Shown here: positions 1 through 51,964 of the stretch, piece after piece
Position numbering within the stretch: the stretch's first letter is position 1
Layout: each line of letters begins with the position of its first letter
Origin: Micractinium sp. NFX-FRZ
Taxonomy: Eukaryota > Chlorophyta > Trebouxiophyceae > Chlorellales > Chlorellaceae
Length of the DNA stretch: 64,000 nt
NCBI GenBank assembly: GCA_029339195.1
Contig: JAPTJF010000071.1
Span: 1 to 64,000 of the forward strand
Reading direction: 5' to 3'
Position numbers and translations under genes: made by a program
Notes under the pieces: generated by a model
What the model was told of the DNA's origin: nothing
Database searches by the model: none
Seen by the model: the letters and a program-made list of their open reading frames with translations, nothing else

Positions 1-360
1 CCGCCGAGCGTAAGGCACCCTTACACCGGCTGTAAGGCACCCTTACACTCACCTCCCCCTCCCCCCTCCTCACCACCGGCCCGCCGGGCAAAACCGCCGA
101 GCGTAAGGCACCCTTACACCGGCTGTAAGGCACCCTTACACTCACCTCCCCCTCCCCCCTCCTCACCACCGGCCCGCCGGGCAAAACCGCCGAGCGTAAG
201 GCACCCTTACACCGGCTGTAAGGCACCCTTACACTCACCTCCCCCTCCCCCCTCCTCACCACCGGCCCGGCGGTTGCCGCCGCCGAGCGTAAGGCACCCT
301 TACACCCACCTCCCAAAATCCCCACCTTGCCACCGGGCCGGCGGTTGCCGCTGCCGAGCG
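1..360. repeat. 93-bp tandem satellite with paired palindromes
   Basis: Units start at 1, 94, 187 and 280, an exact 93-bp period. The first three are almost identical; the fourth diverges after about 30 bases and fades near 360. Each full unit has two copies of GTAAGGCACCCTTAC, an inverted repeat (GTAAGG/CCTTAC around CAC), followed by a pyrimidine-rich run and a CCGGCCCGCCGGGC block. The array reaches the left edge of the window, so its true length is unknown. It lies beyond the 3' end of the minus-strand gene at 663-11490. Confidence 0.95.
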
Positions 361-662: not shown

Positions 663-3600
663 TCAGGATTGCAGCTTGATCAGGGCAGGCGTGTCGTACT
701 GGTCCAGCCAGTACTGTATGTGTTGTGCACGCTCGGGGTCGTGCCCATGCATGCATTCCAGCAGGCTGGGGCCATTGGCTTTGCACACTTCCATGGCAAC
801 CTTGTTGGGCAGCCCACGAATCTTGCACACCTCTGCGTGCACCTCAAAGCTGCAGCAGGATAGGAGGGTGCCAAACGGGGCAGCAACGGATTGGTGAGTG
901 CAATTGCAGCAGAGGAGAAACAGTTGGCAAGCGATGGACCTGCTCTTCGCAAACAGATGCCGCACAAATTCAGCGTTCCAGTTGCATGGTGCGTCCAAAG
1001 GCAATCTGAGGCATGGCCAGACACCACCTCGGCCCCTCTCACTGCCATGCCTCACCAGAAGAAGATGAGGAGGGCGAAAGAGGGGGCCAGCGCCAGGAAG
1101 GCGCCCATGTGCTCCTTGTCCACTGTGACTACCGCCAGGCCTCCCAGGGCCAGCCCCATGCTGAGCACCACGACGTACAGGCCCAGGCAGTACGGGTCGC
1201 CGTACAGCTCGGTCTTCTGCTTGTAACCGTGACTGCACCGGCAAGGAGGGCAAGTAGAAGGACAGTGGTGGCGCATGGCTGAGGGGGTGGAGCAGGCACT
1301 GGACAAGGCGGCGTACAGCAGCACAAGGGCTCCCTGCTGCGAACGACCCCCAACTGAGCTTTGGACTGTTGGAGGTCACGGAGCCGCACAGCCGGCACCA
1401 GGCGCCAGGCCCCACCTGACTCTGTTCTGCAAACTCACTTGATGGCCCAGATGTTGGAGGCCAGCCACGTGGCGCAGGCAATGGCGCCTGCCACAGGCGC
1501 CAGCGCATGCGTGGTGCACGTCCCCAGAGAGAGGTAGGCAATCAAGGCCACTGCAGGGGGTGGGGGTGGAAGATGGAGCAGTGGTGGCGCAAGGGGCCTG
1601 GCAGGCTACGTGGCGTTCTCGCTGCCGTCCAGCCACGGCATAGCAGTGGCCCCACAGCGAGCGCAAGGGCAGCAGGTTGGGCGCAGGTCAGTGCTGGCAG
1701 GGCACTGGTGGGGAATTGGTGGGGAGCGGGGCCGACATATGCAGGGTGCAGGCATGGGCAGAGGATACGCAGTTGGGAGGGGGGCGCCAAGGGGAGGAAA
1801 GCAGGCGCATAGCCGGCTCGGCGCAGGCAAGGGCAGGGGACAAGCAGTTGCAAAGAGGGAGGGCGCCAAGTGGGGGGAAGCGGGTGCGCAGCGGGACGGG
1901 AGCAGGAATGGCATGGGGCATGCAGTTGGGAAGAGGGCAGCAAGGGGGAGGAAAGCAGGTGTGCAGCGGGTGGAAGGTGGGCGCAGGCAGGCGGTGCACG
2001 CACGTGTGGTCAGCTCGTCGGCGACGTCGTAGGGCTGGATGGACAGCAGAGAATCCGAGGCTGCAGTCAGTAAGTGCGAGACGGGTGGGGGGTCAGACGA
2101 GGTGGGGTTCAATGTGGGGACAAGGGGCTGGCGGTAACGTCGACAGCACGCTGCTAGGTGGGTCAGCCTGGCATGGCACGGCAGGGCACGTACAGCACAC
2201 AAATAGACGGACGCCAGCATGCTGCACTATGCATGGTGTCATCCATTCAGCACTCACTCTTGCCAAGGGCGATGCGAGCAAAGCGCAGGAAGCGGCTGCT
2301 GTGCTATCCATTCTTGGCAATGCGAGCAAAGCGCAGGAAGCGGCTGCTGTGCTATCCATTCAGCACTCACTCTTGCCAAGGGCGATGCGGGCAAAGCGCA
2401 GGAAGCCGCCACAGCACAGCAGCCGCTTCATCCAGGAGAAGGAGAACTCGAACTGCACACCAACAACAGTGAGTGAGGGCAGAATAGACGGGAACGGCGT
2501 CCAGTTAGGGGGCACGTGAGGTTGCAGCAAGCCCCCGTTCCACACTCCTTCCCCTCTCCTCCCTATGCACGAAATTGCCCGCCTGCTAGCCTTCCTCCTT
2601 TACATGCCTACCGCTGCACGCAGGGAAACACCCCCCTTGCCAACACCAAGTGCCCCTCCATCTCCCCCTCACCGCCAGCAGGCCAAGGAAGTAGTTCCCA
2701 GCCACAAGGTAGCTCCTGCCAGCCATGGCCATACCGTCTGCAGGAGGGGTGCCAGAAGAAAGGTGGGCCCTGTGGGTGCAGCTTGAAGGTTTGGTGCGGT
2801 CAGGCTAGTGGAGGGCACACAGCTTGCCAGGCAGTGTGCGTGTGGGTGTACAGGTGGGTCACAGGCAGTGAGCTGTCCACCACAGCCCTACAGGCAGGCC
2901 CCGCTGCCAACCGCACACACCTTCAAAGGTGCCCCCAGACTTGACCAGGGCGATGGCGTTGGCGGGGTTGCCCTCAACAATGATGCCCGCCACGAAGAAG
3001 CAGAACTCCCAGAGGGCCAGGATGCAGGAGAACGCCCACTCGCGCGCTGCCACAGACACGTAGCTGCCCTTGCGCTGCAGGGGGCGTGGTGGGCGGAGGC
3101 GCGCAGAGAGCGGGAAAGCAGGCAGGGTGAGGCAGGCAAGAGGGGATTGCGGCAGTGTGCAGGCCAGGTCACATGCCGCCACAGGCGTGCATCTGCGCTG
3201 CAGAGAAAGCTCGCTGCAGCAAACAAGAAACAGGGGTGGGCAGAGAGGGGAGTGGTAGGGTGAGGTGAGAATCGAGGGATTCACGGCAGGGGCACAACAT
3301 GGAGGCCGGCGGGGAAAAGAGAAGGAGTGATGAGTAAACAGCGGCGGAAGGAGGACTGCATAGTGCAGGGGCAAGTTTGGGGGAGGGAGACACAAGGTGG
3401 ACAAGAAAGGAAGCTGCCTGCGTGACCAGGGGTGGGCAGAAGCGTGAGGCAAAGTTGATGAGGGTGGGCAGAGAGCGTGAGGCAAAGCTAAGGTGTGCAA
3501 CAGCAGTGTGTGGGAGGGGTCGGCAGGAACCCTCCCAGGTTGATGCTGGAGGCATTGGAAGCAAAGGCGGAGAACAAGAACAGGAGAGGTGTACAGGTGC

Positions 3601-23631: not shown

Positions 23632-24238
23632 ATGATCAGCTCCGCAGCCCCGGCGCTGACGAGGAGTGGCTCGGTGTTGGCGGGAGCAGCAGCGCGGCAG
23701 CAGGCCCGTGGAGTGGCTCGTCCGGCATTTGGGCGGACAGTGCACAAGACAGCAGCGGTGCAGCAGCAGCAGCGGCGGCAGCAGCGGACAATGGCGGTGC
23801 AGGCGCAGGCTGACGGCTCCAAGCGTGAGTCCCGCTGTTTACCTGCGCTCGTCTGCTGCCTTGTAACGCAAAATGCCGCGTCTTGGATCCCCAACCCGTC
23901 CAGAAAGTGGTAGACTCCTTTATCCCGTTGCCGCCGCCGCCGCCTGCCGCTGCCGTCCCGACACGCGCCTGGCCTCCTGCCCACGCTGCAGCCCAGCGCG
24001 CCAGCGTGGATGACAAGCGCGCCATCCTGGACAAGGTGGACTGCTTCATCTTTGACTGCGATGGCGTGATATGGCGCGGCGACAGCGTGATTGACGGCGT
24101 GCCGGAGACGCTCGACATGCTTCGCGCTATGGTGCGCCTGCCGCCAGCCACCTCAAGCCGCCACTCAAGCCAGCCTGCTGCTGGGCGTTGTGCTGGAAGT
24201 CTTCTGCTTCTGTGACTAGTACTTCTTTGGCATCGGCA

Positions 24239-24277
<39 letters not shown>

Positions 24278-25570
24278 CGTCGCTGCCGCTGCCGCCAAAC
24301 ACTGCCTGTGCGTGCCGTGCGGCTGCTGAAACCTGGTGCAGGGCACGTTGCTCACCCCTGTTGTTGCCCACCACTCCACCAATCGATGCCAGGGTACCTC
24401 AACACGCCGTCTCCTTCTCTTGCTTCCTCCTCTTTCATGTCCACGGCATGCCTTGCGTGGCTCCCTCCCCCTTTGTGTTCCCCCCTCTCCCCGCCCGTCT
24501 GCAGGGCAAGCAGCTCGTCTTTCATTGCCAACACTTCCCCCCTTTGTTCCAACCCACCTCCCCACCCCTTGCAGGGCAAGCAGCTGGTGTTTGTGACCAA
24601 CAACTCGACCAAGTCGCGCGCCGGCTACCTCAAGAAGTTCACCGGGCTGGGCCTGAACGTGGCGGCCGAGGAGATCTACTCCTCCTCCTACGCGGCCGCC
24701 GCCTACCTGGAGGCAATCAAATTCCCGCAGGACAAGAAGGTGTACGTGGTGGGGGAGGTGAGCCCGCTGTCGGCACGCGGGGTCGCGCATGGGGAGTGTT
24801 CAGGAGTAGGGGAAAGGTGGCAGGTGGGGTGGCCGCTCATTGGGGGGGCCAAGCAGTTCCTGCAAAGAACAGGTGCACGTGGTGGGGGAGGTGAAGCACG
24901 ATCTCTGCACCGTTGCTCGTTCACATGGGAGGAGTCGAGGTGCAATTTTAATAATAAGTTAATGATCACTCTTTTTTCAAATAAACTGGCTTTCAAAAAA
25001 AAGAACAATGTTTATTGACAAAAACATCGTTAAGGATTTAGGAATGTTTAGGGATGTTTAAGAATGTTTAGGAATGTTTAGGAATGTTTAGGAATGTTTA
25101 AGGAAAAAACTTTGGTTTTTGAGGAGATGGGCTCCTGTCCCTCGTGCAAAATATTGTTCAACTGGTGGGTAGCCAGGAGGACCCGGACCTGGCGTGCACC
25201 AGGCGCCTCACGTTGTTGCCACTCTTACCCTTGATCGTCCATGCCGTCGTCTGCTTGCTGGACCACAGGCGGTGGGCAGCCAGGAGGAGCCGGACCTGCC
25301 GGCCACCCAGCAGCTCACCTGACCACTTCCGACCCTACATTCATGCCAGTTGTCTGCCATCCTTGAATGCGTGTGCAGGTGGGCATTCAGGAGGAGCTGG
25401 ACCTGAAGGGCATCCAGCACATTGGGGGGCCCGCCGATGCCGACAAGAAGGTGGAGCTGACGCCGGGGATGCTGCTGGAGCAGGACCGCGACGTGAGGCG
25501 GGGGTGCCTGCTGGGCTTCTGCTGCTGTTTGACCCACTGTGCTGCTGTTTTATCCACTGTACTGCAACGT

Positions 25571-25606
<36 letters not shown>

Positions 25607-27506
25607 GCTCGGTGGGTTGGCTGTTGGTCAGTTCTCTTGGCTGGGCTGCGACCAGTGGACTGAGTGGCCAGCGTGGGGTGTCTCAAGGAAGGTGCAGGCT
25701 TGCAAGGTCATGAGCATGGCCGCGCTGTGAGCAGTAGCGGTGCAGGGGTGGAGGGATGAGAGGCGAGGGTGGGGCTGGGGGCACGCCGGGTGATGTGAGA
25801 GGAGGGGGATGACCGACACCGAGAGGGCGCGCGGCCTGCACAACCCTCCCACCCTGCTTGCCTCCTGCCGGACGTCCTTCCCTTGCATGCAGGTGGGCGG
25901 CCGCTGTGGCTGGCTTGCATCAGCCTGTGCACAACGGTCACAACCTGCTTGCATCCTGCCCGTTGTCCTGCCCTGCAGGTGGGCGCCGTGGTGGTGGGCT
26001 TTGACCGCAACATCAACTACTACAAGATCCAGATGGCCACGCTGTGCATCCGCGAGAACCCCGGCTGCATGTTCATCGCCACCAACACGGGTGAGGGGAG
26101 GCAAGGGGGCATGGGGGAGGGTGGGAGGGGAAGGGGCAAGGGGAGGGAACAGGGAGGGCATGGGTGAGGGTGAGAAGGAGGGGAGGGCGGGCACAGGTTG
26201 AGAGTGGGAGGGAGGGGAGGGAGGGCACAGGGTGAGGGTGGGAGGGGGAGACAGAATGGTTGGGAGGGTGGGGACTGCCGTGGCATGAGGTGCCCCAAGC
26301 TTGCCGCTGCGGGGCTGCTCCAGCCGCGCACGCCCTGCTCACCCTCCTTACCCTGCCTTGCCCTGCCCCCTTCCGTCTGCCTCTGCCTGCCTGCCTCAGA
26401 TGCGGTGACGCACCTGACGGATGCGCAGGAGTGGGCGGGCAATGGCAGCATGGTCGGTGCCATCCGCGGTGAGCACAGGCAGCGGCTGGGCCTGGAGAAC
26501 TGCTGCTGGGGCCCTCGTGCCCTGCGGCACGCTGCTGCTGGCATGTCAGCTCACCCCCCTTTTGCCTGCATTGCAAAAGCGCCGGTTGCTTGCCTGCCTG
26601 TGCAGGCTCCACCAAGCACGTGCCCACTTGCTTGCCTGCCTGCCTATTGTGGCAGCCGTGCTGCTGCCTGCATGCTGCTCGCCCCGCCGCCTGCCTGCCT
26701 GCCTGCCTGTTGTGACAACCCTGCTCCCGCCTGCTCACCCCGCAGCCTGCCTGCTTTCCATGTGCCTGCAGGCTCCACCAAGCGAGAGCCTTCTTGCCTG
26801 CCTGCCTCCCTACTGCTGCTGCTGCTGCTCACCCCGCCGCCTGCTTGCCTGCCTGCCCGCCTGCCTGTTGTGGTGCAGGCTCCACCAAGCGGGAGCCGAC
26901 GGTGGTGGGCAAGCCCGCTGAGTTCATGCTGGAGAACATCGCCACCCAGTTTGGGCTGAAGCGGGAGCAGGTGACTATAAAAGGTTTATGGCATGGGTGG
27001 GGTGGGCATGGGTGCGTGCTGGAAAATGGTGCGGCCCCCAGTGTGGGCTAAAGCGGGAGCAGGTGAGCTGCATGTTGTGCAGTTTCAACAGAAGGTGGCG
27101 AGCAGGAGGGTTGGGAGAAAAAGGTGTTGGTTGACAGCGTAAGCAGGTGTGGGTGCACAAGGGCGCAGGCGTGGTGGTTGTTGGGCGGCACGCCTAGCCT
27201 GCTTCTTCCCCCACTCTCCACCCTGCCTCCTCCTCCCCCCTCCCCTTCCTCCCCCCTCCCCACAGATTTGCATAGTGGGCGACCCCTGAATTGGACATCC
27301 TGCCTGCTTCCTCACCCATGCTGCTACCTCCTCCCCTCACACCTTCCTCCCTCTCTCCCCCTCCCCTTCCTCCCCCCTCCACAGATCTGCATGGTGGGCG
27401 ACCGCCTGGACACCGACATCCTGTTTGGAAAGAACGGCGGCCTCACCACCATGCTCGTCCTCTCTGGTGCGTGGGCTGGCAGTACCACCTCTTGCGGCGG
27501 CAGTAG

Positions 27507-27537
<31 letters not shown>

Positions 27538-27991
27538 TGCTCCTGCTGCTGCTGCTGCTTTGTTCCTCACTCTGCCACCTGTCCGTGCTGCTGCGCTCGC
27601 CCCCTCATCCCCTCCCCGTGCCTCCTCCTTCTGTCCCTCCCATTCCTGTGCGCAGGCATGACCACAGGAGCAGCTGCTGAGCCCGCCCCACCTTTGCTCA
27701 CCTCACCATCCCCTCCCTTGCCCCTCTTGATCTGCCCCTGTTTTCCCGGTCTGCTTTCGTGCAGGCGTGACCACGGAGGAGCAGCTGCCGAGCCTGCTTC
27801 GCCTGTCCTTGCTGTTGCACGGGCCCCCTCACCCCCTCTCCATCCATTTACCGTTGTGTCCTCCATTGTCCCCGTGTGCAGGCGTGACCACGGAGGAGCA
27901 GCTGCTGAGCGCCGAGAACAGCATCCACCCCGACTGCTACATGGACTCCCTGGCTGCGCTGCTGGACGTCAAGCAGGCCGTGGCCGCGTAA
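23632..27991 (+). CDS. PGP1: Phosphoglycolate phosphatase, chloroplast precursor
   Basis: Nine exons close in phase to 364 residues: 23632-23824, 23992-24131, 24575-24757, 25379-25492, 25979-26090, 26400-26468, 26879-26970, 27385-27466 and 27882-27991 (TAA). Residues 1-60 are Ala/Arg/Gln-rich without acids, typical of a plastid transit peptide. The mature part is a HAD phosphatase of the PGP/NPP type. Motif I is FDCDGVIW with nucleophile Asp86 and Asp88. Motif II is VTNNSTKSR (Thr119). The motif III Lys is in VVGKPAEF (about 282), and motif IV is GDRLDTDI (Asp307, Asp310). The enzyme hydrolyses 2-phosphoglycolate, the first step of photorespiration, in the chloroplast stroma. Introns 3, 4, 6, 7 and 8 contain decayed repeats of neighbouring exon edges. 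TGTAA at 28402-28406 is a candidate polyadenylation signal. Confidence 0.96.
24240..24275 (+). repeat. CTG microsatellite in phosphatase intron 2
   Basis: About twelve perfect CTG units lie in intron 2 of the phosphoglycolate phosphatase gene. Similar but separate runs occur in intron 8 near 27507-27535 and in the R3H gene near 61185-61260. They are common in GC-rich algal introns. Confidence 0.9.
24505..24530 (+). repeat. Acceptor echo of phosphatase exon 3
   Basis: GCAGGGCAAGCAGCTCGTCT at about 24501-24520 repeats the exon 3 start at 24575 together with its acceptor. It differs by one base before diverging (the codons for Gly-Lys-Gln-Leu-Val-Phe are kept). The copy runs out of homology after about 22 bases of exon. 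Offset from the true acceptor is about 70 bp. Confidence 0.85.
24856..24896 (+). repeat. Donor echo of phosphatase exon 3
   Basis: CACGTGGTGGGGGAGGTGA near 24876-24894 repeats the end of exon 3 and its donor (true GT at 24758), 133 bp downstream. The preceding bases CAGTTCCTGCAAAGAACAGG still resemble the exon sequence that codes for FPQDKK. It leaves a second donor-like site in the intron. Confidence 0.85.
24935..25115 (+). repeat. AT-rich island with AGGAATGTTT decamer array
   Basis: Within phosphatase intron 3, about 180 bp are abruptly AT-rich, unlike all surrounding sequence. They include ATTTTAATAATAAGTTAATG and runs of A and T. From about 25036 to 25100 there are seven near-perfect tandem copies of AGGAATGTTT (variants AGGGATGTTT and AAGAATGTTT). 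One variant contains TTTAGGG, the plant-type telomere heptamer, but only once. No coding capacity or clear target-site duplication was found. Confidence 0.85.
25164..25305 (+). repeat. Two acceptor echoes of phosphatase exon 4
   Basis: Copies starting at 25164 and 25271 repeat the start of exon 4 (25378, counted from the same G). The spacing is exactly 107 bp each time. The core GGTGGGCAGCCAGGAGGAGC matches GGTGGGCATTCAGGAGGAGC at the true exon. The copy at 25271 keeps an AG shortly upstream (ACCACAGGC), while the copy at 25164 has lost it. Confidence 0.9.
25573..25612 (+). repeat. GT microsatellite in phosphatase intron 4
   Basis: A run of about eighteen GT dinucleotides, ending GCGTGTGC, lies in intron 4 of the phosphatase gene. 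Confidence 0.9.
25860..25915 (+). repeat. Acceptor echo of phosphatase exon 5
   Basis: GCATGCAGGTGGGCGGCCGC at about 25885-25904 repeats the acceptor and start of exon 5 (true start 25979), 86 bp upstream. The homology extends leftward through GCTTGCCTCCTGCC, which recurs as GCTTGCATCCTGCC before the true acceptor. It therefore covers intron as well as exon sequence. Confidence 0.8.
26600..26800 (+). repeat. Two acceptor echoes of phosphatase exon 7
   Basis: GCAGGCTCCACCAAGC occurs at 26602 and 26769 as well as at the true acceptor (exon start 26879). The first copy continues ACGTGCCCAC and the second GAGAGCCTTCTTG, compared with GGGAGCCGACGG in the exon. Both keep a consensus acceptor. The second would read the first six codons of exon 7 and then diverge. 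Copies of TGCCTGCC lie between them. Confidence 0.92.
27030..27300 (+). repeat. Donor echo of exon 7 and acceptor echo of exon 8 in one phosphatase intron
   Basis: TGGGCTAAAGCGGGAGCAGG at about 27045-27064 repeats the end of exon 7 with its donor, about 91 bp downstream. It carries a one-base change and a deletion that would break the frame. At 27266, ATTTGCATAGTGGGCGACCC repeats the start of exon 8 (true start 27385) with its CACAG acceptor, 119 bp upstream, and contains an in-frame TAG. Confidence 0.92.
27650..27800 (+). repeat. Two acceptor echoes of phosphatase exon 9
   Basis: Copies of the exon 9 start (true start 27882) lie at 27656 and 27765, spaced 109 and 117 bp. The copy at 27765 reads GCGTGACCACGGAGGAGCAG exactly as the real exon for at least 25 bases, preceded by GTGCAG. 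The copy at 27656 has a deletion in GACCACAGGAGCAG. Both carry usable-looking acceptors. Confidence 0.93.
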
Positions 27992-28601
27992 GCAGCTTCT
28001 GGTTGCTGCCTGCCTGCCTGCCTGCGGCCTGGTCCTGGGGTGTCGCTGCAGGTGATGTACACAACAGCACGGCGCTCCAAGCACCTGGGCTTCCTCTCCA
28101 CTTGACGTACACAACAGCACGGCCCTCCAAGCACCCCCCACCCCTCCCCCACCTCCTGCACTGAGATCCGGTTTGCTCTTTGGTCACTCTGCACCCATTC
28201 TGCCCCACCGTGTTGTCCATTTGGTGCCGAGCCCGCCTGCCTCGTTTCATGGGAACTCTCACAACAAATGACGACACTGTGCCTGGCCGCGTGAACCCGC
28301 TTGCGCCTTCTTGACGACGGGGTGGCGCCCTGCCCGCCCAGACATTTCGTTCCGCCCCTCCCCAAACCCTGCTATCATTCATTTCTGCTGTTTGATTTTC
28401 CTGTAACATTGCTCCGGATGGTCCACTCCCGCCTGTGACCCACCACAGCCTGGCTTGGACAGGCGCCTGCAGCGGCGCACGCTGAGCACGCCGTCGCGGG
28501 GTGGCAGCGGCCGGCAGTATCGGGGCACCCCAGGCGCTGGTCGCCCAGCCACCGACTGATCCTGCTTCCCGGATCGCCTACACTCTAGTGCAAGCAGCAA
28601 C
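27992..28601. other. Phosphatase 3' region and upstream region of the next gene
   Basis: A 50-bp tandem duplication (GTACACAACAGCACGGCGCT and following) starts at 28057 and 28107, just after the phosphatase stop. TGTAA at 28402-28406 is a candidate polyadenylation signal, 410 nt past the stop. The remainder should hold the promoter of the gene at 28602. No TATA box was seen. Confidence 0.55.
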
Positions 28602-43506: not shown

Positions 43507-46218
43507 TCAGCTGCGCCCCGTGGCGAACTGCACACGCCGCTGCTCCTCTGCCGCAACCTGCGCAGGCATCAGGGGGTGCAGGCACACAGAGCAGGAGGCC
43601 CAGGGTGGCAGCGCGTCACACCCATGAAGCAACACCGGCGCTCCCCGGGCAGCGGTGCATCAACCACCACACAGCACCCCACTCTCCCCTGGCAAGCCCA
43701 CCTGGCTGCCACGCGCCGCCTTTGAGCTGAAGCTACCAGACTCTGCAGCCACGTAGACATCTGCCGCTGGGACCGACGGCGCCTCGCTGCCGCTGCGGCC
43801 ATCAGCTGAGACCTGCACAGTGGAGAAGCATGGGGGCAGGTTTGGCTTTGAATCAAAACAGGCAGAGCTCGTGAAGGCCTGCTATGTGCACCCTGACCTT
43901 GTTCCGGTGCCCCCAGGTCCTTCCCACTGCACCACACCTGCCGTGCGCCGCTCCTCTTCTGCCGCTTCGACTTGCCGGCGCTCGCCTTCTTGCGCATCAC
44001 CGGCAGCTCAAAGCCGCGCGCCGCCAGCGCTGTGCGGCACTGCAGCAGAGGATCAGAGCAGCCGGAAGGTGTACGGTTGAAGCTCTGTCCACTCCATGCA
44101 TGACCCTGGCCCTCTCTGCCCTTGCACTCATAGGGAAAGCCCGCCAATGGTTCAGGGGTGCAGCGGTTGTGAATAGGCAGGCAGGCCATTCAGCTTCCTT
44201 TCCCTGACCAGAGTGCGTCTCACCTTGTCGCCGATGCTCACACAGTCTGCCTCCTCGCAGTCCAGCAGGAAGCTGACCCAGGCCTGGCAGGGCGGGAGGG
44301 CAGCAGGCACACTAGTCTGTGTCGTGAGCATATGCCCATGCGCTGGCTGTGCCGTGCAGCCGCGGCGCACATCTCGCATTCTTGTGGTTGGCACACCAGG
44401 CAGGCCTGCTCCAGCTGCTGTAGCTGCTACAGCCGCAGCGGCTGCGTCACAGCCCATGCACGCTGCCCGGTGGCAAACAACACACGACATGTCACTACTC
44501 ACCGCCAGCATGGCGGGCGTCACTGAGGGCTTCTCCCCGCTCTCCACCAGCGCCGTCTGCTGGTCCACAGCAAAGCTGACCATCTGGCGCTTGGCAGCTG
44601 CACGCAGCGGCAGAAAGGCAGCGGGGAAGGGGCATTTACTACTAGCGCTGCGCTCCCCCTGCGTGTGTCGCACTCAAGGGCTGCTGGCACGTATGCCCAG
44701 GCGCACGCGTGCAGGGTCTGTGCGCCAGCGGGGGTGCACCCTCACCTGCCACGCCGCTGCTGGACTCCAGGCGGCACAGCACCAGCAGGCTGTAGAAGGC
44801 GGGGAGCGCGAGGAGCACCACCGCAGCCAGGCCCTGCACAGCAGGCAGCAGCGCAAGATGCGCAGAAGACAGCGGGCAGCGTGACTGGCAGCCTGCTGCG
44901 TGCATGCGTGCGCAGGGAGGCAGGCAGGCTGGCGCAGTGCGGGCAGTGCAAGCCCAGGCCGGGCGGGCCCAGCCGCCCTGCCCCAGTGCCATGCCAGCGC
45001 ACACCGCACCGTGAAGGCCAGGATGAACTTGTTGGCCTGCTCTCGTGCAGGGTCGCACACGTCACGTGGGTACGCGGTGCAGCTGCAGGCGGGGGCAGGG
45101 GGCAGGCACCCACCAATGTGTGACTGGTTTGTGGTGGATGTCCCAAGCCACTTACAAGCCACACTGTCACGCTGTCAAGGGCACAGTACCCTTGCACACG
45201 GTGCATATGATCTCAGCCGCTGCCCGCAATCGCAGTTCTCCTTTTAGTTGCCGTCGCACCTGCCGCAGGTGGGGTCTGCCGCCATGATAGAAGCAGTGCA
45301 GGTGTTGGTGGTGGCACAGCCGCAGTTTTCGCAGCCCGTGAACGCAGACTGCCGCGTGGCGCAGCTGCAGAGGGGTCGGTCGGAAGGGCAGCAGGGCAGT
45401 AGGCAGGATGAGCTCTGTGGGAGGGCCCGTCAGGACACAGGAGGGTGCTCCGCACGTGTTGCAAGCTTTGTAGTGTGGTGTGGTGCCGTGCTGCGCTTGC
45501 CCTGCACCCACCGAGTGTCCAGCTGCAGCCAGAAGGCGGTGTCAAAGCCGCCCAGGGCCGCGCCCAGCATGCAGCACACCGCGGCATGCAGCGCCAGCAG
45601 CACTGCAGCAGTTTGGGGCATGAGGAGGGCGGTATGATTGACAGTGGCGGCAGTGGGTGTAGGAAGGTGGGTGCGTGCATTCGTTCCTTGGTCGCACTCC
45701 TGCCCCTGTTGTTGCAGTGCCTCAGGTACTCGGTCGTCTCCACAGCCCGCAGCCACGCCCCATCGTACGCACCGTTGTTGCCCAGCCCATGCGCCAGGAC
45801 GCCAAGCGTGCACGCCACGCCCACCACAATCCAGTGCGCCCACGCAAAGGGGCCCAGCGTCATGCCAGCGTGCTGGAACACGAATCCATAGCTGACAGCC
45901 GGCAGCGCGGAGGCGGCCAGAAGGCAGGCGGTGGAGACGATGATCGCCTGGAGCGTGGAGGCAGGCGGGAGGGGGCGCGCGATGGGTGCATGCATGTTAT
46001 GCCTCTACCCACTCCAGGTGATTCTGGCCTCCAAGGCTGCCCAGCACAAGCGAGTTCAACATCAGCTCTGGCACGAAAGGGCAGCGCTAGCGGCACCGAG
46101 GCGGCACAGAGCGGGCACCCCGCCCAACCGCGCTCCGGCGGCAAATACAGCCCCACCGCAGCTGCATGCCTACCTGAAGGCGAAGCCTGTCGGCACTCAA
46201 TCTCAGCGTGTCGCGCAT
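43507..46218 (-). CDS. Four-TM protein with Cys-rich loop, tetraspanin-like topology
   Basis: Eleven exons close in phase to 331 residues: 46218-46174, 45947-45773, 45602-45512, 45364-45260, 45082-45010, 44833-44746, 44597-44503, 44283-44224, 44039-43938, 43812-43702 and 43557-43507 (TGA). Three TMs come early (IIVSTACLLAASALPAV; WIVVGVACTLGVLAHGL; LLALHAAVCCMLGAAL). A loop follows with many cysteines in paired spacing (GCENCGC, CTAS, PTCGSC, RDVC). A fourth TM is FILAFTVGLAAVVLLALPAF. The tail of about 150 residues is cytoplasmic-looking, with KASAGKSKRQKR and a Ser/Ala-rich end. The arrangement of four TMs with a Cys-rich loop between the third and fourth is that of tetraspanins. The CCG motif is absent, so the resemblance is only topological. 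Confidence 0.8.
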
Positions 46219-46841
46219 CGTGCCCCGCCTAAACAGCTTGTCGCCGCCTGCCGACTGTTTCGTCGCAGTCAAGCAGCCGCTGGAGCCGCCGTCGCCCTGC
46301 AAAATGCACTTTTACAATGCAGCGACACGCATGTCAGCTACACATGCAGGAATGGGTGCGCTTGGGTGAGGAAGCGAGTCAAGGCAAAGACGCCACGTAG
46401 GCCCGCCCCAAAGTGAAGCCCTATGCAGTCCAGCACCCTTGATCAGCAAAACCCACGCTTCCCTGTGCCAGCACAAGCCCTCCGCCGCTCGCAAAGCCCT
46501 CACAGCTCGTCGGCCTTCGTGCCCTGCGGAGTCCCCGCCTGCCTGCAGCCAGTGGAGCCGCCATGTGTGAGTGATCAAGGGCTCGAGTGGGGCTGGCCAA
46601 CCGGCTGTGCGTCTCGCCGACCTGGCTGACCCCCTTGCGATCGCGGGCTCTGCCTCCTGTTCTGGCGCTCCTACGGGCTGAAAGAAACGATGGAGGGGCC
46701 TACAGCGCGCGCTGAGGGAGCGGGGAGGCTGCGCACCCTCGCTACCCTCGCCGCCGCCGCTTGCTGCCTGCCCTCGCCGCCGCGCAACTGCACGCCGCTC
46801 GTGCCCCCTGTCCTGCAGCGTTCGGCGAGGACACATCGGAG
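46219..46841. other. Divergent upstream region of two genes
   Basis: This 623-bp interval lies between two genes transcribed away from each other. A CTGCAG acceptor-like site just before 46819 leaves open a 5' exon of the V-ATPase gene in this stretch. An ATG at 46690 starts a frame, but no matching donor was found. No TATA box was recognised. Confidence 0.45.
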
Positions 46842-49800
46842 ATGTGCCTCTTCAACGTGAAGGACGGGTTCCTGGGTGCGTGGCGGGCAGCAGCTGCCAG
46901 CAGTGGTCGATGTTGCAGCCGCTGCAGGAGCAACTGAGCAGAATGCGGCAATGGGTCGCTGCGGCATCGACCTAGTGGCAGCACACGCAGCCCTGCGCGG
47001 GCACTGGCTAGCCTGGAGAAGCGGTGGCAGCAACATACAGTTTCAAGGCAGCTGCAGCGCAGTGCTGCTTGTTCATGCCGCTGAGCTGCCGCCGCGTGCC
47101 GGTCGCCCTGCCCTTGCCCCTGCCCTACCCTCGCCCGCCGTGTTGCCCGTGCTGCAGAGGCGGTGGTGCGTGGGTACAAGCTGGGGCTGCTGACCACCGC
47201 GGATTACAACAACCTGTGCCAGTGCGAGACGCTGGAAGACATTAAGCTGTACCTGGTGGGTGGGTGGGTGGGTGGGTGCTGGGTGTGCTTATTGGTCGCT
47301 GCTTGGGCACGCTTGCGGGTTGGGGTGGTGCGGGGCGGGGTGGATGTGTGAAGTGAAGGTCACTACTCATGCGGAAGGTTGGGAATCACTTATGGCGTTC
47401 ACTTTGACAGGCTTCTAGTTTGCTGGACGCCAGTTCCCTTTCTTGGAAAGCAGCCGTACTGAAAGGGTGCTGCTGCTGCCACTGTGCCTGCCCCGCCCTG
47501 CCCCGCAGACGGGCACCGACTACGGCCCCTTCCTGGCCAACGAACCCTCCCCCATGCACACCACCACGCTGGTGGACTGCTGCACACGCAAGCTGGTGGC
47601 GGACTGGAAGTACCTTCGGGAGAACGTGAGGCGGACCTGGGAGTGGGGTCCGGGAGCGGGGGCGGGGGCAGGGCAGGAGGGGAGTGTGGCGGCGGGGCAT
47701 GGTAGGTCAGCGTCAGAGCTGCGGTGGGCTTTCTGAGATCACCGTGAGAGGGCATGCAACGGCGTGAGGCACAGGGGGTCCCCCAGCAAGGGCATGGCAA
47801 CGCTGCAGCCTGGCTGCTTGGCAGCGTGGCTGTGCTGTCCTCGCCACTGGGGGTGCACGTGCCGCTGTCGCCATCGATAATGATGCCCCGCTCACCACAC
47901 TTGCATGGTGCCCCACCGACCTGCCCCCGCCCTCCCTGCAGGCGGGCGAGCCGCTGGCCCGCTTCCTGGACTACTGCACCTACGGCCACATGATTGACAA
48001 TGTGGTGCTCATTGTGACGGGCACGCTGCACGAGCGGGACGTGCAGGTGGGTGGGGCAGCGGGGCTTGAAAGGTGGAGCAGGTGTGTGGGGGCTGCGGGT
48101 GTCACATTGATTACATTATTTTGTGTGCGGGCAGGGGGGCCAGCAGGGGCGCGGCCTAGTGGGGTGGATGAGTGGATGAGGTGCAGCGCAGGTTGCGCTG
48201 TTGCGCTGCTGCACGAGCAGGCTGCTGCCTCATACAAGAGCAGCCTGCTGGGCAAGCCCCCACTGCTTTGAGCCACCTGCTCTTGCCTCCACAGGAGCTG
48301 CTGGAGAAGTGCAGCCCGCTGGGCACGTGTTGACACGGCCGCCAGCTTCTGCCCACCAATCCTAGTGTGCCAACCGTCCTTCATACGTGCGTTCAAACTG
48401 CCCCACCGACTGCAGGAGCTGCTGGAGAAGTGCAGCCCGCTGGGCATGTTTGACGCGATTGCCAGCCTGGCGGTGGCGCAGAACATGCGGGACCTGTACC
48501 GCCTGGTGCTGGTGGACACGCCGCTGGCGCCCTACTTCTCAGACAACCTCACATCGGAGGACCTGGATGAAATGAACATCGAGGTGAGACGGGGAGAGGG
48601 AGGGAGAGCGGGGAGAGGGACAGATGAGAGGGAGAGCGCGAGAGAGAGGGGGAGAGGAAGCGAGAGAGAGAGCAAGACAGAGAGGGAGGCGTGTGCGAGG
48701 CAGAGGGAGGGAGAGGGGAGGTGAGCTGTTCTGGGGTTTTGAACTGCTGTGCATGAGCCAGTCAGTGGTGCATTGAAGGCCTGGAGGAGGGATTTTGAGC
48801 GCGCACCTACCCTCCCTCCCTGGTGTTACGACCCCACACCCCGCATGTATGCAACACGCTGCACAAGGCCTCCCCCTCTCCTTCTTGACCTGCCCCCTCC
48901 CTTCCCCCCCCTTCCCTCCCTGCCCCCCCAAGTGATGCGCAACACGCTGTGCAAGGCCTCCCTTCCTCTGACCTGCCCCCTCCCTCCCCCCTTCCCGCCC
49001 TCACCACCCGCTGCCCCCGGGGCGCCCCCCCCCCCCCCCAGGTGATGCGCAACACGCTGCACACGGCCTCCCTCCCTCCTGACCTGCCCCCTCCCTCCCC
49101 CATTCCCTCCCTGCCCCCACCCCCACCTCTTACCCCCCCCCTATCTTCCCTCCCCCCGCCCCCAGGTCATGCGCAACACGCTGTACAAGGCCTACCTGGA
49201 CGACTTTGCCGCCTTTGTGCACAAAGTGGGGGGCACCACAGGCGAGGTGATGAGCGAGATGCTGTCGTTCGAGGTGGGTGGGAGGGGCAGGGAATGGGGG
49301 GGCAGGGATGGGGTGGTGGTGCCGCGGAGGGGTAGGGGCAGGTGTTAGGGGTGGGACACAGGGAGGGTGCGAACAGAGGGGGCGTCATCAGCGTGCCATG
49401 CAAAGTGGGGAGAGAGGAGCATGTGGGGCCAGGTTGCAAAGTGTGAGCTGCAGCCCGGCAAGTGCTCTGGGCTGTTAGAGCGCTGGGGGCTGGGCGCAAT
49501 AGGGGTTAAGCCGGTCATGTTGGCGGTTACTGTGACCTGACACCATGCCCGCCGTGCACGACCCGCCACCTGCCTCCCCCCCTCCTCCTCTCCCGCCGGC
49601 CTGGCGTTCTGCTGTGCGCCTGCTGTGTACCACCCACCCACCCTGTCCGCCACTTGGCCTGCCCACTCATCCTCCTGGTCTCTGCCTTACGCCCTTTTGT
49701 TCAGCACCCACCCACCCTCCCCGCCACATGGCCTGCTCACTCATCCTCCTGGCCACAACCACATCCTCCTGGGCCACACCCACAAGCCAACCCGTCTGCT

Positions 49801-51964
49801 TCCGATCCTCTGCTGCTGCTGCAGGCCGACCGCCGCGCGCTCAACATCACCCTCAACTCAATCGGCACCGAGCTGACGCGGGACGACCGGCGCAAGCTGT
49901 ACGCCAACTTTGGCCTGCTCTACCCGCATGGGCAGGTGGGCAGGCGACACAGGAAGGGGCGCTGCCTTGTGTGTGGCAGCCAGGGCAGGCGCGGCGGTTT
50001 GGCCTACAAGCGGTCCACACTCTCAAACCGCTTCATGTGGTCGGACGCCGCCCCGCCTGGTGTAGTCCCCACCACCCGACGCCCTTCATGCCGCCTCTGC
50101 CTCAACCCTCGCCTCTGCCTGCCCCGCCCAGCTCCTACTTCGCCCAGCCTCACCCCAGCCCGGCCCTCGCCTCATGACCATCTGTCTGCACGCTGAGCTG
50201 GCGGTACCGCAGGACTGCCCGCCAGACACCTGCCAGTTTTGCCACGTCCCCTTGCTCGCCCTGCCACCCATGCTCCTTGCTGCCCCCCCCCTGTTCTCCT
50301 CCCTGTCAGGCTGAGCTGGCGGTGGCCAAGGGCTGTTAGCCAGATATCTGCCATGCTTTACCAGATTCCCCCGCCAACCCTGCCGCGCACAAGTACCTTG
50401 TTCTGCCTTGCTCCTCCCATGCAGGCTGAGCTGGCGGTGGCCGAGGACTTTGACCAGATACGCTCAGCCATGGAGAAGTGCCAGCCATACCAGGCCATCT
50501 TCAGCAGGGTGAGCGGGTGCACAGGGGGGGCAGGCAGGCGGGCAGTGCTGCTTCTGTGCACTGAGGCGTGGGCAGGCAGGGCTGCAACAGTGCAGTGCAA
50601 TGTGGCGAAGGTAGGGATGCATGCGCTGCCATGGAGAAGTGCCAGCCTTACCAGGCCATCTTCAGCAGGGTGAGCGGGGTGCAGGGGGCGGGCAGGCGGG
50701 CAGGCGGGGCTGTGCAGCTGCAAATGGGGGCAGGGCATGGTAGCGTGGATGGATGCACACACCGGCATGGAGACGTGCCTGCCTGCCATGCCAGCCACCT
50801 GCAGCATGACAGCACAGGGGGCTGGGGGGTCGTTCTGGGCCCACAACCGTACATGTCCCCGGGGCACTGGAGGGCAGAGGTGGCAGGCCGTGCGCGGCGC
50901 CACATGCATAAGGTCCCTCTTGTCGCGCTCACGCACCCTACCTACCCACCCCCACACGCACACGTGAATCTGTCGCTTCTGCCCTGGGGCCTGGCAACCT
51001 CTGGGCGGCACCTGCATGCTAGCCTGCCCCCCTCACTGCCACCTCTCTCCCCCCCACCCGGACCCCCCCTTCGACCCCCCTTCCCCTGCAGCTGGGGCTG
51101 GGCGGCACCTGAATGCTAGCCTGCCCCCCTCACTGCCACCTCCCTCCCCCCCACCCGCAACCCCCCCTTCGACCCCCCTTCCCCTGCAGCTGGGGCTGGG
51201 CGGCACCTGAATGCTAGCCTGCCCCCCTCACAGCCACCTCCCTCCCCTCCACCCGGAACCCCCCCTTCGACCCCCCTTCCCCTGCAGCTGGGGCTGGGCG
51301 AGACGCAGATGCTGGACAAGATCATGTACGAGGAGGAGGTGCGGCAGCTGATGAACACCTTTGAGCAGCAGTTCCACTATGGCGTCTTCTACGCATACAT
51401 GCGCCTCAGGTGGGCGGGCGGCGGTGTTCTGGAGGCGTGCAGGGGCGGGCGTGGGGTCGTGCCGCGGCTCAGGCGGGCAACAGTCAAACAGGGGTGCGAG
51501 TGCCGAGTCGTGCCCAAGGGGGGTGTGGGCAAGCGGCGTGCCGCTGCAGGGTTGTGTTGCATGCTGCTCAGGCGCGCAGGTGGGGGCAGTGTGGGGTCGG
51601 CTGGAGGTGCGCAGGTTGCATAGCACCAGCCCGGCCCAGGCGCGCGGGCCCGCCTTGTCTGCGCTGCCTGTGCCCGCCCAGGCGCCCAAGCCTCCCCCGC
51701 TCCCTCCTGCCTTCCGCCCGTCTCGCCGCCCCAAAAAGGGCAGGACATCCGCCATCAGCAAGTGCCCCTGCCCCCCCGCCTGAACGCCCTCCCCTCCACC
51801 GCTTCATGCCCCCCGGCTCCTCATGCCCAGGCCCCTCGCCCTTGCCTCCCCCCCGCCGCTTGCCCCGCAGGGAGCAGGAGATCCGCAACGTCATGTGGAT
51901 TGCCGAGTGTGTGGCTCAGGACCAAAAGAACCGGGTGCAGGACGGCATCGTCTTCACATTCTGA
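46842..51964 (+). CDS. VHA-d: V-type proton ATPase subunit d
   Basis: Ten exons close in phase to 346 residues: 46842-46875, 47158-47255, 47509-47625, 47942-48046, 48416-48583, 49166-49273, 49825-49935, 50425-50508, 51288-51409 and 51871-51964 (TGA). The sequence follows subunit d of the family from end to end: [83 protein letters not shown], and [14 protein letters not shown] at the C-terminus. Subunit d sits on the membrane Vo ring and couples it to the central stalk of the acidifying pump in vacuole and Golgi membranes. The ATG at 46842 gives the short MCLFNV start; a few more N-terminal residues from an upstream exon are possible. Introns 4, 5, 7 and 8 carry repeated exon edges. Confidence 0.96.
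48290..48345 (+). repeat. Acceptor echo of V-ATPase d exon 5
   Basis: Starting at 48295, GAGCTGCTGGAGAAGTGCAG and the next bases repeat exon 5 (true start 48416), 121 bp upstream. About 33 bases are identical, then homology continues with gaps (GTGTTGACACGGCCGCCAGC). The CACAG acceptor is intact. The copy reaches an in-frame stop (CACGTGTTGA) soon after. Confidence 0.95.
48590..48720 (+). repeat. GA-rich simple sequence in V-ATPase d intron 5
   Basis: Runs of GAGAGGGAGA-type sequence fill the start of intron 5. They give no coding sense. Confidence 0.85.
48840..49075 (+). repeat. Three acceptor echoes of V-ATPase d exon 6
   Basis: Copies of the exon 6 start (true start 49166) begin near 48844, 48932 and 49042, at spacings of 88, 110 and 124 bp. 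Each keeps GCAACACGCTG and a form of TGCACAAGGCCTCC, where the exon has TGTACAAGGCCTACC. The copy at 49042 has an intact CCCAG acceptor, the one at 48932 has CCAAG, and the first has lost it. They form a graded series of decay with distance from the exon. Confidence 0.95.
49625..49760 (+). repeat. 79-bp tandem duplication in V-ATPase d intron 6
   Basis: CACCCACCCACCCTGTCCGC through CTCATCCTCCTGG at about 49627-49677 recurs at about 49706-49756. Unlike the echoes in neighbouring introns, it does not include exon sequence. Confidence 0.8.
50188..50365 (+). repeat. Two acceptor echoes of V-ATPase d exon 8
   Basis: GCTGAGCTGGCGGT occurs at 50192 and 50310 before the true exon start at 50425 (spacing 118 and 115 bp). 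The nearer copy keeps GTCAG as acceptor and 20 bases of exon (GCTGAGCTGGCGGTGGCC) before an in-frame TAG. The farther copy has lost the acceptor and has more changes. Confidence 0.94.
50622..50672 (+). repeat. Donor echo of V-ATPase d exon 8
   Basis: From about 50629, CCATGGAGAAGTGCCAGCCT and the rest of the exon end, through TTCAGCAGGGTGAGCGG, repeat the last 41 bases of exon 8 plus its donor. The offset is 161 bp, with one substitution in the exon part. This is the best preserved donor echo in the window. Confidence 0.96.
50980..51287 (+). repeat. 98-bp tandem array ending at V-ATPase d exon 9
   Basis: CTGCAGCTGGGGCTGGGCG recurs with exact 98-bp spacing at 51092, 51190 and 51288; the last is the true start of exon 9. 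A more decayed copy lies near 50985-51025. The upstream copies continue GCACCTGAATGCTAGCC where the exon has AGACGCAGATGCTGGAC. The frame is broken by a TGA, but the acceptors are intact. Confidence 0.95.

What the first reader, a model, noticed from the sequence alone, without database searches (positions are those of the whole stretch)
24501..27895. Exon-edge echoes in phosphoglycolate phosphatase: five introns carry decayed copies of the flanking exon borders
Acceptor-side copies (intron 3' end plus exon 5' end) lie at 24505, 25164, 25271, 25893, 26605, 26772, 27266, 27656 and 27765. Donor-side copies (exon 3' end plus GT) lie at about 24876 and 27045. Copies within an intron are evenly spaced (107/107; 109/117). 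The copy nearest the real exon is usually the best preserved, and most copies break the frame. The repeat unit straddles an exon-intron border rather than lying inside an intron, and this recurs independently at most borders of one gene. One reading is repeated short tandem duplication across splice junctions, which lengthens introns and multiplies decoy splice sites. A function in splice-site choice is also possible. I know of no named system of this kind.
Basis: partly seen in the sequence, partly recalled or inferred. Interest (0 to 1): 0.9.

Follow-up and report, generated by a model that had tools for sequence, protein, structure and literature searches.

The report
Exon-edge copies inside algal introns
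In a Chlorella-like green alga about one intron in five of those sampled carries a decaying copy of the first or last few dozen letters of its own neighbouring exon, most likely scars of small duplications that splicing hides, which offers ready-made tests of how a cell picks the right splice site.

Summary
The phosphoglycolate phosphatase (PGP) borders are supported by homologous proteins, and the named copies are there; one (25893) is weak alone. With my own gene models on 264 kb of this 66-Mb genome, 52 of 232 trusted introns carry an exon-edge copy (about 1 expected from mismatched introns); on 80 kb not used for training, 15 of 69. Copies sit in the intron half next to their exon, about 115 bp from the real border. 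Their mismatches are flat over codon positions, and 0 of 74 show the Rogers-type intron-gain layout. Best reading: short tandem duplications spanning splice junctions, tolerated because splicing still yields the normal mRNA; they lengthen introns. A fresh case in the V-ATPase subunit d gene has three consecutive acceptors sharing 28 bp before the AG and 13 bp after. Two features go beyond plain duplication. The exon part rarely exceeds about 50 nt (4 of 42; 25 expected with uniform breakpoints), on both exon sides. The exon part also outlives the intron part more than my neutral simulation predicts. I read the first as selection against duplications that copy a whole exon-definition zone. No relative's DNA and no RNA were available.

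The parts
23632..27991 (+). Phosphoglycolate phosphatase gene, 9 exons, 8 introns
24505..24522 (+). acceptor-side echo of exon 24575-24757; own AG intact
   Evidence: 16/18, 0/200 shuffles; intron-side homology p 0.016
24871..24890 (+). donor-side echo of exon end 24738-24757; GT intact
   Evidence: 19/20, 0/200; site
25164..25211 (+). outer acceptor-side echo of exon 25379-25492
   Evidence: family D9, spacing 107/107
25272..25312 (+). inner acceptor-side echo of exon 25379-25492; AG lost
   Evidence: 34/41, 0/200; intron side p 0.016
25893..25916 (+). weak acceptor-side echo of exon 25979-26090
   Evidence: 19/24, 58/200 (not significant alone); D16 shows an 81% repeat of the adjoining intron
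26606..26617 (+). outer acceptor-side echo of exon 26879-26970
   Evidence: (D7, D13)
26772..26790 (+). inner acceptor-side echo of exon 26879-26970; AG intact
   Evidence: 18/19, 0/200; intron side p 0.016
27037..27062 (+). donor-side echo of exon end 26945-26970; GT intact
   Evidence: 24/26, 0/200; site
27266..27302 (+). acceptor-side echo of exon 27385-27466; AG intact
   Evidence: 31/39, 0/200; intron side 82% over 57 columns
27656..27682 (+). outer acceptor-side echo of exon 27882-27991
   Evidence: score 41
27765..27793 (+). inner acceptor-side echo of exon 27882-27991; AG intact
   Evidence: 28/29, 0/200; no detectable intron-side homology to the adjoining unit (p 0.38)
46819..51964 (+). 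V-type ATPase subunit d gene (the model starts at 45999; its first two small exons are uncertain)
   Evidence: Pfam PF01992; gap-free 347-residue alignment to a solved subunit d
48295..48345 (+). acceptor-side echo of exon 48416-48583
   Evidence: score 69
48932..49073 (+). two acceptor-side echoes (48932-48963, 49042-49073) of exon 49166-49273
50310..50355 (+). acceptor-side echo of exon 50425-50508
50628..50669 (+). donor-side echo of exon end 50467-50508, 98% over 42 nt, GTGAGC intact
51001..51300 (+). fresh 98-bp array, 3.1 copies, spanning the acceptor of exon 51288-51409: acceptors before 51092, 51190 and 51288 share 28 bp before the AG and 13 bp after it; the first two lead to an in-frame stop
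2241..2293 (-). another junction-spanning duplication (98%, spacing 113) in a minus-strand gene

Best explanation
The echoes are relics of small tandem duplications, typically about 100-130 bp, that span an exon-intron border. After such a duplication only one of the two identical splice junctions, the downstream acceptor or the upstream donor, is joined to the intact exon. As long as the spliceosome uses that one the mRNA is unchanged, so the duplication is nearly neutral. The other junction is swallowed by the intron, which grows by one unit, and decays. Local duplications also occur inside introns; those seen inside exons were all in frame. The cap of about 50 nt on the copied exon part, alike at acceptors and donors, is most simply read as selection: a decoy that brings a full zone of exonic splicing signals with it would compete with the real site and be purged. 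Shown: the copies, their excess in a 344-kb sample, position, spacing and cap, intron-side homology in under half of the cases, and decay without coding constraint. Inferred: tandem duplication for the rest, neutral passage through splicing, and selection as cause of the cap.
For: Exon-edge 50-mers match their own intron at score >=28 in 32 of 232 (acceptor) and 24 of 232 (donor), with 0.4 and 0.6 expected; 28 and 19 remain after dropping simple-repeat and off-border matches. Replicated in 15 of 69 introns on new contigs. Acceptor echoes lie in the 3' half (37 of 40), donor echoes in the 5' half (31 of 34). Intron-side homology is detectable in 23 of 51 at p<=0.05. A fresh array at 51001-51300 repeats intron tail and exon head together. 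Copy frequency is 3.0-9.8% in the 20 intron windows tested (mean about 6.6%) and 13.6% / 10.1% at the acceptor / donor exon edge, 2.1 and 1.5 times the intron mean; a factor of two is expected if only one partner can change. Exon-exon duplications have lags divisible by 3 in 10 of 10 pairs (from about five regions); junction-spanning ones in 15 of 37, or 8 of 30 without one repetitive region, so the frame is not their filter. Mismatches by codon position: 10, 11.5, 12.1% and 10.5, 13.8, 13.8%. Introns with an echo are longer. The exon part exceeds 51 nt in 4 of 42 against 25.0 expected and does not grow with unit length.
Against: The intron side is more diverged than a neutral tandem model gives (median score 14.5 against simulated medians of 26-34), and some copies with 95-97% exon identity show no detectable intron homology to the adjoining unit. 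Junction unit length is tighter (quartiles 101.5-128.75) than intron-intron lags (59-136.5). The intact-AG deficit (19 of 34 against 27.1 naive) shrinks to about 21-26 expected once detection bias is simulated, so it does not prove selection against decoys. Echo introns cluster by gene (p 0.001), unexplained. The per-position comparison predicting 29.9 junction-spanning duplications (22 strict, 37 loose seen; 7 of the 37 from one repetitive region) assumed uniform breakpoints, which rejects.
Confidence: 0.62

Rival explanations
1. A border-seeking duplication mechanism. Copying is triggered at exon-intron borders, for instance by polymerase stalling at the G-rich intron starts and C/T-rich intron ends or by transcription-linked breaks, so breakpoints fall at fixed distances: about 35 nt into the exon and about 80 nt into the intron.
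For: Tight spacing and tight exon reach, alike at both exon ends; exon part outlives intron part; clustering by gene.
Against: Copy frequency shows no peak on the intron side of the border (but 60 and 70 low-complexity windows next to the acceptor and 30 and 51 next to the donor were skipped); in-frame duplications occur inside exons.
Confidence: 0.22
2. The echoes are functional: alternative or poison splice sites or exon copies that regulate splicing and are kept by selection.
For: Exon part better preserved than intron part; GT intact in 15 of 18 and AG in 19 of 34 border-aligned copies.
Against: Flat codon-position mismatches; AG retention not above the neutral simulation; 29 of 34 intact echo sites would cause a frameshift or stop if used; none of the 11 relatives' PGP proteins aligned carries an insertion at an echo border.
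Confidence: 0.08
3. Intron birth by tandem duplication (Rogers model): the whole intron is a duplicated exon stretch.
For: Exon copies within introns; the model is in print.
Against: It puts the downstream exon's copy right after the donor GT and the upstream exon's copy right before the acceptor AG; 0 of 74 copies lie within 15 nt of the opposite splice site.
Confidence: 0.02
4. Artefact: misassembly, wrong gene models, low-complexity or chance similarity.
For: My gene models are ab initio; introns are rich in simple sequence. One acceptor match is a plain AGC run (C1 86929-87141 on the minus strand), and one donor match (C1 145992-148244) lies in a repetitive coding region and is probably a mis-called border; both stay in the counts of 32 and 24.
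Against: Reverse-complement controls at the edges 2 of 297 and 1 of 297; mismatched-intron null; 23 of 34 echo junctions in 8 genes lie inside Pfam matches; V-ATPase d aligns gap-free across its four echo junctions; most copies are diverged, not identical.
Confidence: 0.03

Closest known systems
Potato RdRp gene: tandem duplication crossing an intron-exon boundary (Ma, Lan and Niu 2016, PMC4974935; abstract and passages seen)
   Same: The duplicated unit is the 3' side of an intron plus the 5' side of the next exon, with branch site, pyrimidine tract, AG and nearby exonic sequence.
   Different: There it created a new intron in one gene. Here the extra copy is absorbed into the existing intron, in about a fifth of the introns sampled, on donor as well as acceptor sides.
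Rogers-type intron gain by duplication of an AGGT-bearing exon stretch (described in PMC4974935 and PMC2891723; passages seen)
   Same: Tandem duplication with splicing hiding the extra copy.
   Different: Echo positions are the reverse of that model; 0 of 74 fit. No new intron is seen in PGP or V-ATPase d.
Intron sliding and NAGNAG/GYRGYR shifts (PMC2891723, passages)
   Same: A second splice site near the first.
   Different: Distances here are about 115 bp and exon sequence is copied; in PGP the protein is unchanged at the borders.
Introner-like elements (title and abstract start only)
   Same: Intron sequence arising repeatedly in one genome.
   Different: Echoes come from each intron's own exon: the null with other genes' introns is 0.15-0.24%. 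A genome search with a PGP stretch found only itself and its echo; one with the V-ATPase array found itself and one partial 79% match.
Tandem exon duplication with mutually exclusive splicing (abstract start only)
   Same: Duplicated exon sequence beside the original.
   Different: Mostly 20-50 nt of exon are copied, frame is not kept, no sign of coding constraint.

Membership tests
Tandem duplication across a splice junction | Copy contains both intron and exon sequence contiguous across the border | tested here: inconclusive
   detectable in 23 of 51 (about 2.6 expected at p 0.05) and clear in the fresh array 51001-51300; the other 28 show none, decayed or never there
Tandem duplication across a splice junction | Extra copy lies beside the original, about one unit away, on the intron side | tested here: met
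   37 of 40 and 31 of 34 in the adjoining half; arrays with repeated spacing
Tandem duplication across a splice junction | Breakpoints spread evenly over the border (expected of an unfiltered process) | tested here: not met
   exon part >51 nt in 4 of 42, 25.0 expected; the process is either filtered by selection or border-directed
Rogers-type intron gain | Downstream-exon copy at the intron's 5' end, upstream-exon copy at its 3' end | tested here: not met
   0 of 74
Alternative or cassette exons | Coding constraint on the copy | tested here: not met
   mismatch nearly flat over codon positions
Alternative or cassette exons | Use in transcripts | not testable with these tools
   no RNA data; 11 relatives' PGP proteins show no insertion at the borders
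Introner-like elements | Shared sequence family among introns of different genes | tested here: not met
   mismatched-intron null 0.15-0.24% at score 28; genome searches with two stretches found no family (that search skips simple repeats)

The most novel reading that the evidence does not exclude
The cap on copied exon sequence, alike at acceptors and donors, measures how much exon makes a splice site win: junction duplications survive only if they leave behind the roughly 50-nt exonic zone that marks a real border. The genome would then be a natural saturation experiment on exon definition, with cases such as three acceptors sharing 28 bp before the AG and 13 bp after it. Alternatively the cap reveals a border-seeking duplication mechanism not described before.
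Probability: 0.4. Interest if true: 0.82.

Novelty: new variant of a known kind. Interest (0 to 1): 0.68.

Why it matters
It gives a concrete route by which introns may lengthen without harm. It also turns a normally scattered event into a population large enough to ask what distinguishes a used splice site from a near-identical unused one a hundred bases away. It warns gene annotators too: about a fifth of the introns sampled here contain plausible false exon edges.

Tried and rejected
The first self-training of the gene finder collapsed into thousands of tiny exons; replaced by a penalised version. The first mechanistic conclusion, that uniform tandem duplication suffices, was overturned by the depth profile. 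One search is discarded: its two sequences overlapped, giving self-matches; one search replaces it. Relatives' DNA was sought in viral contigs: 11 pattern matches, no relative. Papers: nine searches listed nothing that I recognised as describing exon-edge copies as a genome-wide feature; I judged titles and abstract starts only. The Coccomyxa, Auxenochlorella and Chlorella vulgaris genome papers were seen as search passages and do not mention it there. The Chlorella variabilis NC64A genome paper is not held; I have a faint, unchecked recollection that it may remark on repeats of exon ends in introns, so priority is uncertain.
Full report
What was checked. The region holds a phosphoglycolate phosphatase gene (Pfam hydrolase matches) of a Chlorella-like green alga: the protein is 95% identical to its best hit and 91-92% to C. 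ohadii, C. variabilis, C. sorokiniana and Micractinium conductrix. Against 11 relatives the aligned part shows no insertion or deletion at its seven exon borders (the Chlamydomonas protein has a two-residue gap elsewhere, and two proteins an extra residue near the C-terminus). The genome is 66 Mb in 838 contigs and the window is the start of contig 71.

Are the copies real? Yes. Five acceptor-side and two donor-side best matches beat all 200 dinucleotide shuffles of their introns; the one at 25893 does not on its own (58/200). Spaced families are reported independently.

Is it only this gene? No. I built a small gene finder. It recovered the PGP exons, with 58 genes and 424 introns in 264 kb (window plus 200 kb of contig 1). 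Of 417 introns in genes scoring at least 30, I used the 232 flanked by two well-supported exons and set 185 aside. Fifty-base exon edges were aligned to their own intron and to introns of other genes. At score 28 or more, 32 of 232 acceptor sides and 24 of 232 donor sides matched, with 0.4 and 0.6 expected; together 52 of 232 introns. These counts keep one simple AGC-run match and one match in a repetitive coding region with a doubtful border; 28 and 19 remain after a simple-repeat and border filter. With the model frozen, 80 kb from contigs 20 and 40 gave 15 of 69 usable introns (of 114 predicted), about 0.2 expected. Reverse-complement controls gave 2 of 297 and 1 of 297 at the edges. In eight of the ten genes printed, 23 of 34 echo junctions lie inside Pfam matches. 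The V-ATPase subunit d protein aligns gap-free over 347 residues across its four echo junctions.

What do the copies look like? Acceptor echoes lie in the 3' half of the intron (37 of 40) and donor echoes in the 5' half (31 of 34). For exons of at least 100 nt and copies aligned to the border, the distance to the real border has quartiles 101.5, 116 and 128.75 bp (n 42; 15 further matches that start more than 5 nt inside the exon are listed and left out). Several introns hold two or three copies (26 intron sides). Mismatches between copy and exon are nearly equal at the three codon positions, so I see no coding constraint. The AG is intact in 19 of 34 and the GT in 15 of 18 border-aligned copies. 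A simulation of neutral decay with the same detection rules keeps the AG in 63-76%, so the observed 56% is at most a slight deficit. Of 34 intact sites, 29 would give a frameshift or stop if used.

The fresh case. In the V-ATPase d gene a 98-bp unit is present 3.1 times at 51001-51300, running into the exon at 51288. The three acceptors share 28 bp before the AG and 13 bp after it; the first two would lead to a TGA in frame. A donor echo in the same intron is 98% identical over 42 nt. I take these to show what the PGP echoes looked like before decay.

Mechanism. The 20 intron windows tested carry local copies at 3.0-9.8% (mean about 6.6%). The exon edge shows 13.6% (acceptor) and 10.1% (donor), 2.1 and 1.5 times as much; a factor of two is expected when one of the two copies is held fixed by coding constraint. 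Duplications within exons all had lags that are multiples of three (10 of 10 pairs, from about five regions). Intron-side homology is detectable in 16 of 31 acceptor and 7 of 20 donor echoes. This fits tandem duplications that include the junction. The longer introns (401.5 against 246 bp; 420 against 255.5 in the second set) fit growth by whole units.

What does not fit a plain process. First, the exon part stops early: the 50-100 nt stretch of exons is copied in 2 of 206 and 1 of 205 cases against 40 and 34 of 297 for the first 50 nt. The drop is as steep when annotation is ignored (50 of 399 at the edge, 3 of 343 from 40 nt inward on the acceptor side; 33 of 387 and 3 of 334 on the donor side), so it is unlikely to be a gene-finder effect. 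With uniform breakpoints 25.0 of 42 echoes should reach beyond 51 nt; 4 do. Requiring at least 50 nt of intron in the unit still predicts 12.3 (P 0.0007). The reach does not grow with unit length (Spearman 0.10 and -0.44, p 0.64 and 0.06). The need to keep a branch point could cap the acceptor side but not the donor side, which is capped alike. I therefore favour selection through splicing: a decoy that carries the whole exonic zone marking a site would compete with the real one. This step is inferred. Second, the intron part is more diverged than neutral simulation allows at the observed exon identity. Faster slippage in low-complexity intron sequence, gene conversion from the exon, or selection could cause this; I could not separate them. 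Third, echo introns cluster by gene (permutation p 0.001).

Placement. The closest published event that I saw is a single potato gene in which a duplication of intron end plus exon start made a new intron (PMC4974935, abstract and passages). The classical Rogers model fails on position: 0 of 74. Nine library searches listed no report that I recognised of such copies as a genome-wide feature, but the most relevant genome paper (C. variabilis NC64A) is not held. Passages of other papers give mean introns of 206-207 bp in C. vulgaris and 209 bp in the table column that I take to be C. variabilis (column head not shown); here the trusted median is 302 bp.

Limits. Gene models are mine, without RNA. 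About 0.5% of the genome was examined (344 kb of 66 Mb). No relative's DNA was available, so age, polymorphism and comparison with other algae remain open.

Noticed in passing
window 24930-25150: AT-rich insert (GC down to 24% in a 65% GC window) with a 10-bp TTTAGGAATG array inside a PGP intron; a genome DNA search found only itself (that search skips simple repeats). Origin unknown.
   Followed up: partly
window 28034-28133: 50-bp tandem duplication (82%) just after the PGP stop codon, probably 3' UTR: perhaps the same process outside splice junctions.
   Followed up: no
window 1-306: 93-bp unit repeated 3.3 times at 96% at the very start of the window and contig.
   Followed up: no
C1:145772-146083 (joined L003-L022): Dense overlapping repeats with lags all multiples of three, inside a predicted exon and the start of its predicted intron 145992-148244; looks like a repetitive protein region whose intron border is mis-called.
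   Followed up: no
G000:C61:7707-9790: Distant second PGP-like gene on the minus strand, 43-49% identity; its introns were not read and could show whether echoes are gene-specific.
   Followed up: no
L033 (G000:C635:15374-15450): 79% match over about 75 bp to the V-ATPase d array unit on another contig, although the protein search finds one gene copy; may be pyrimidine-rich chance similarity.
   Followed up: no
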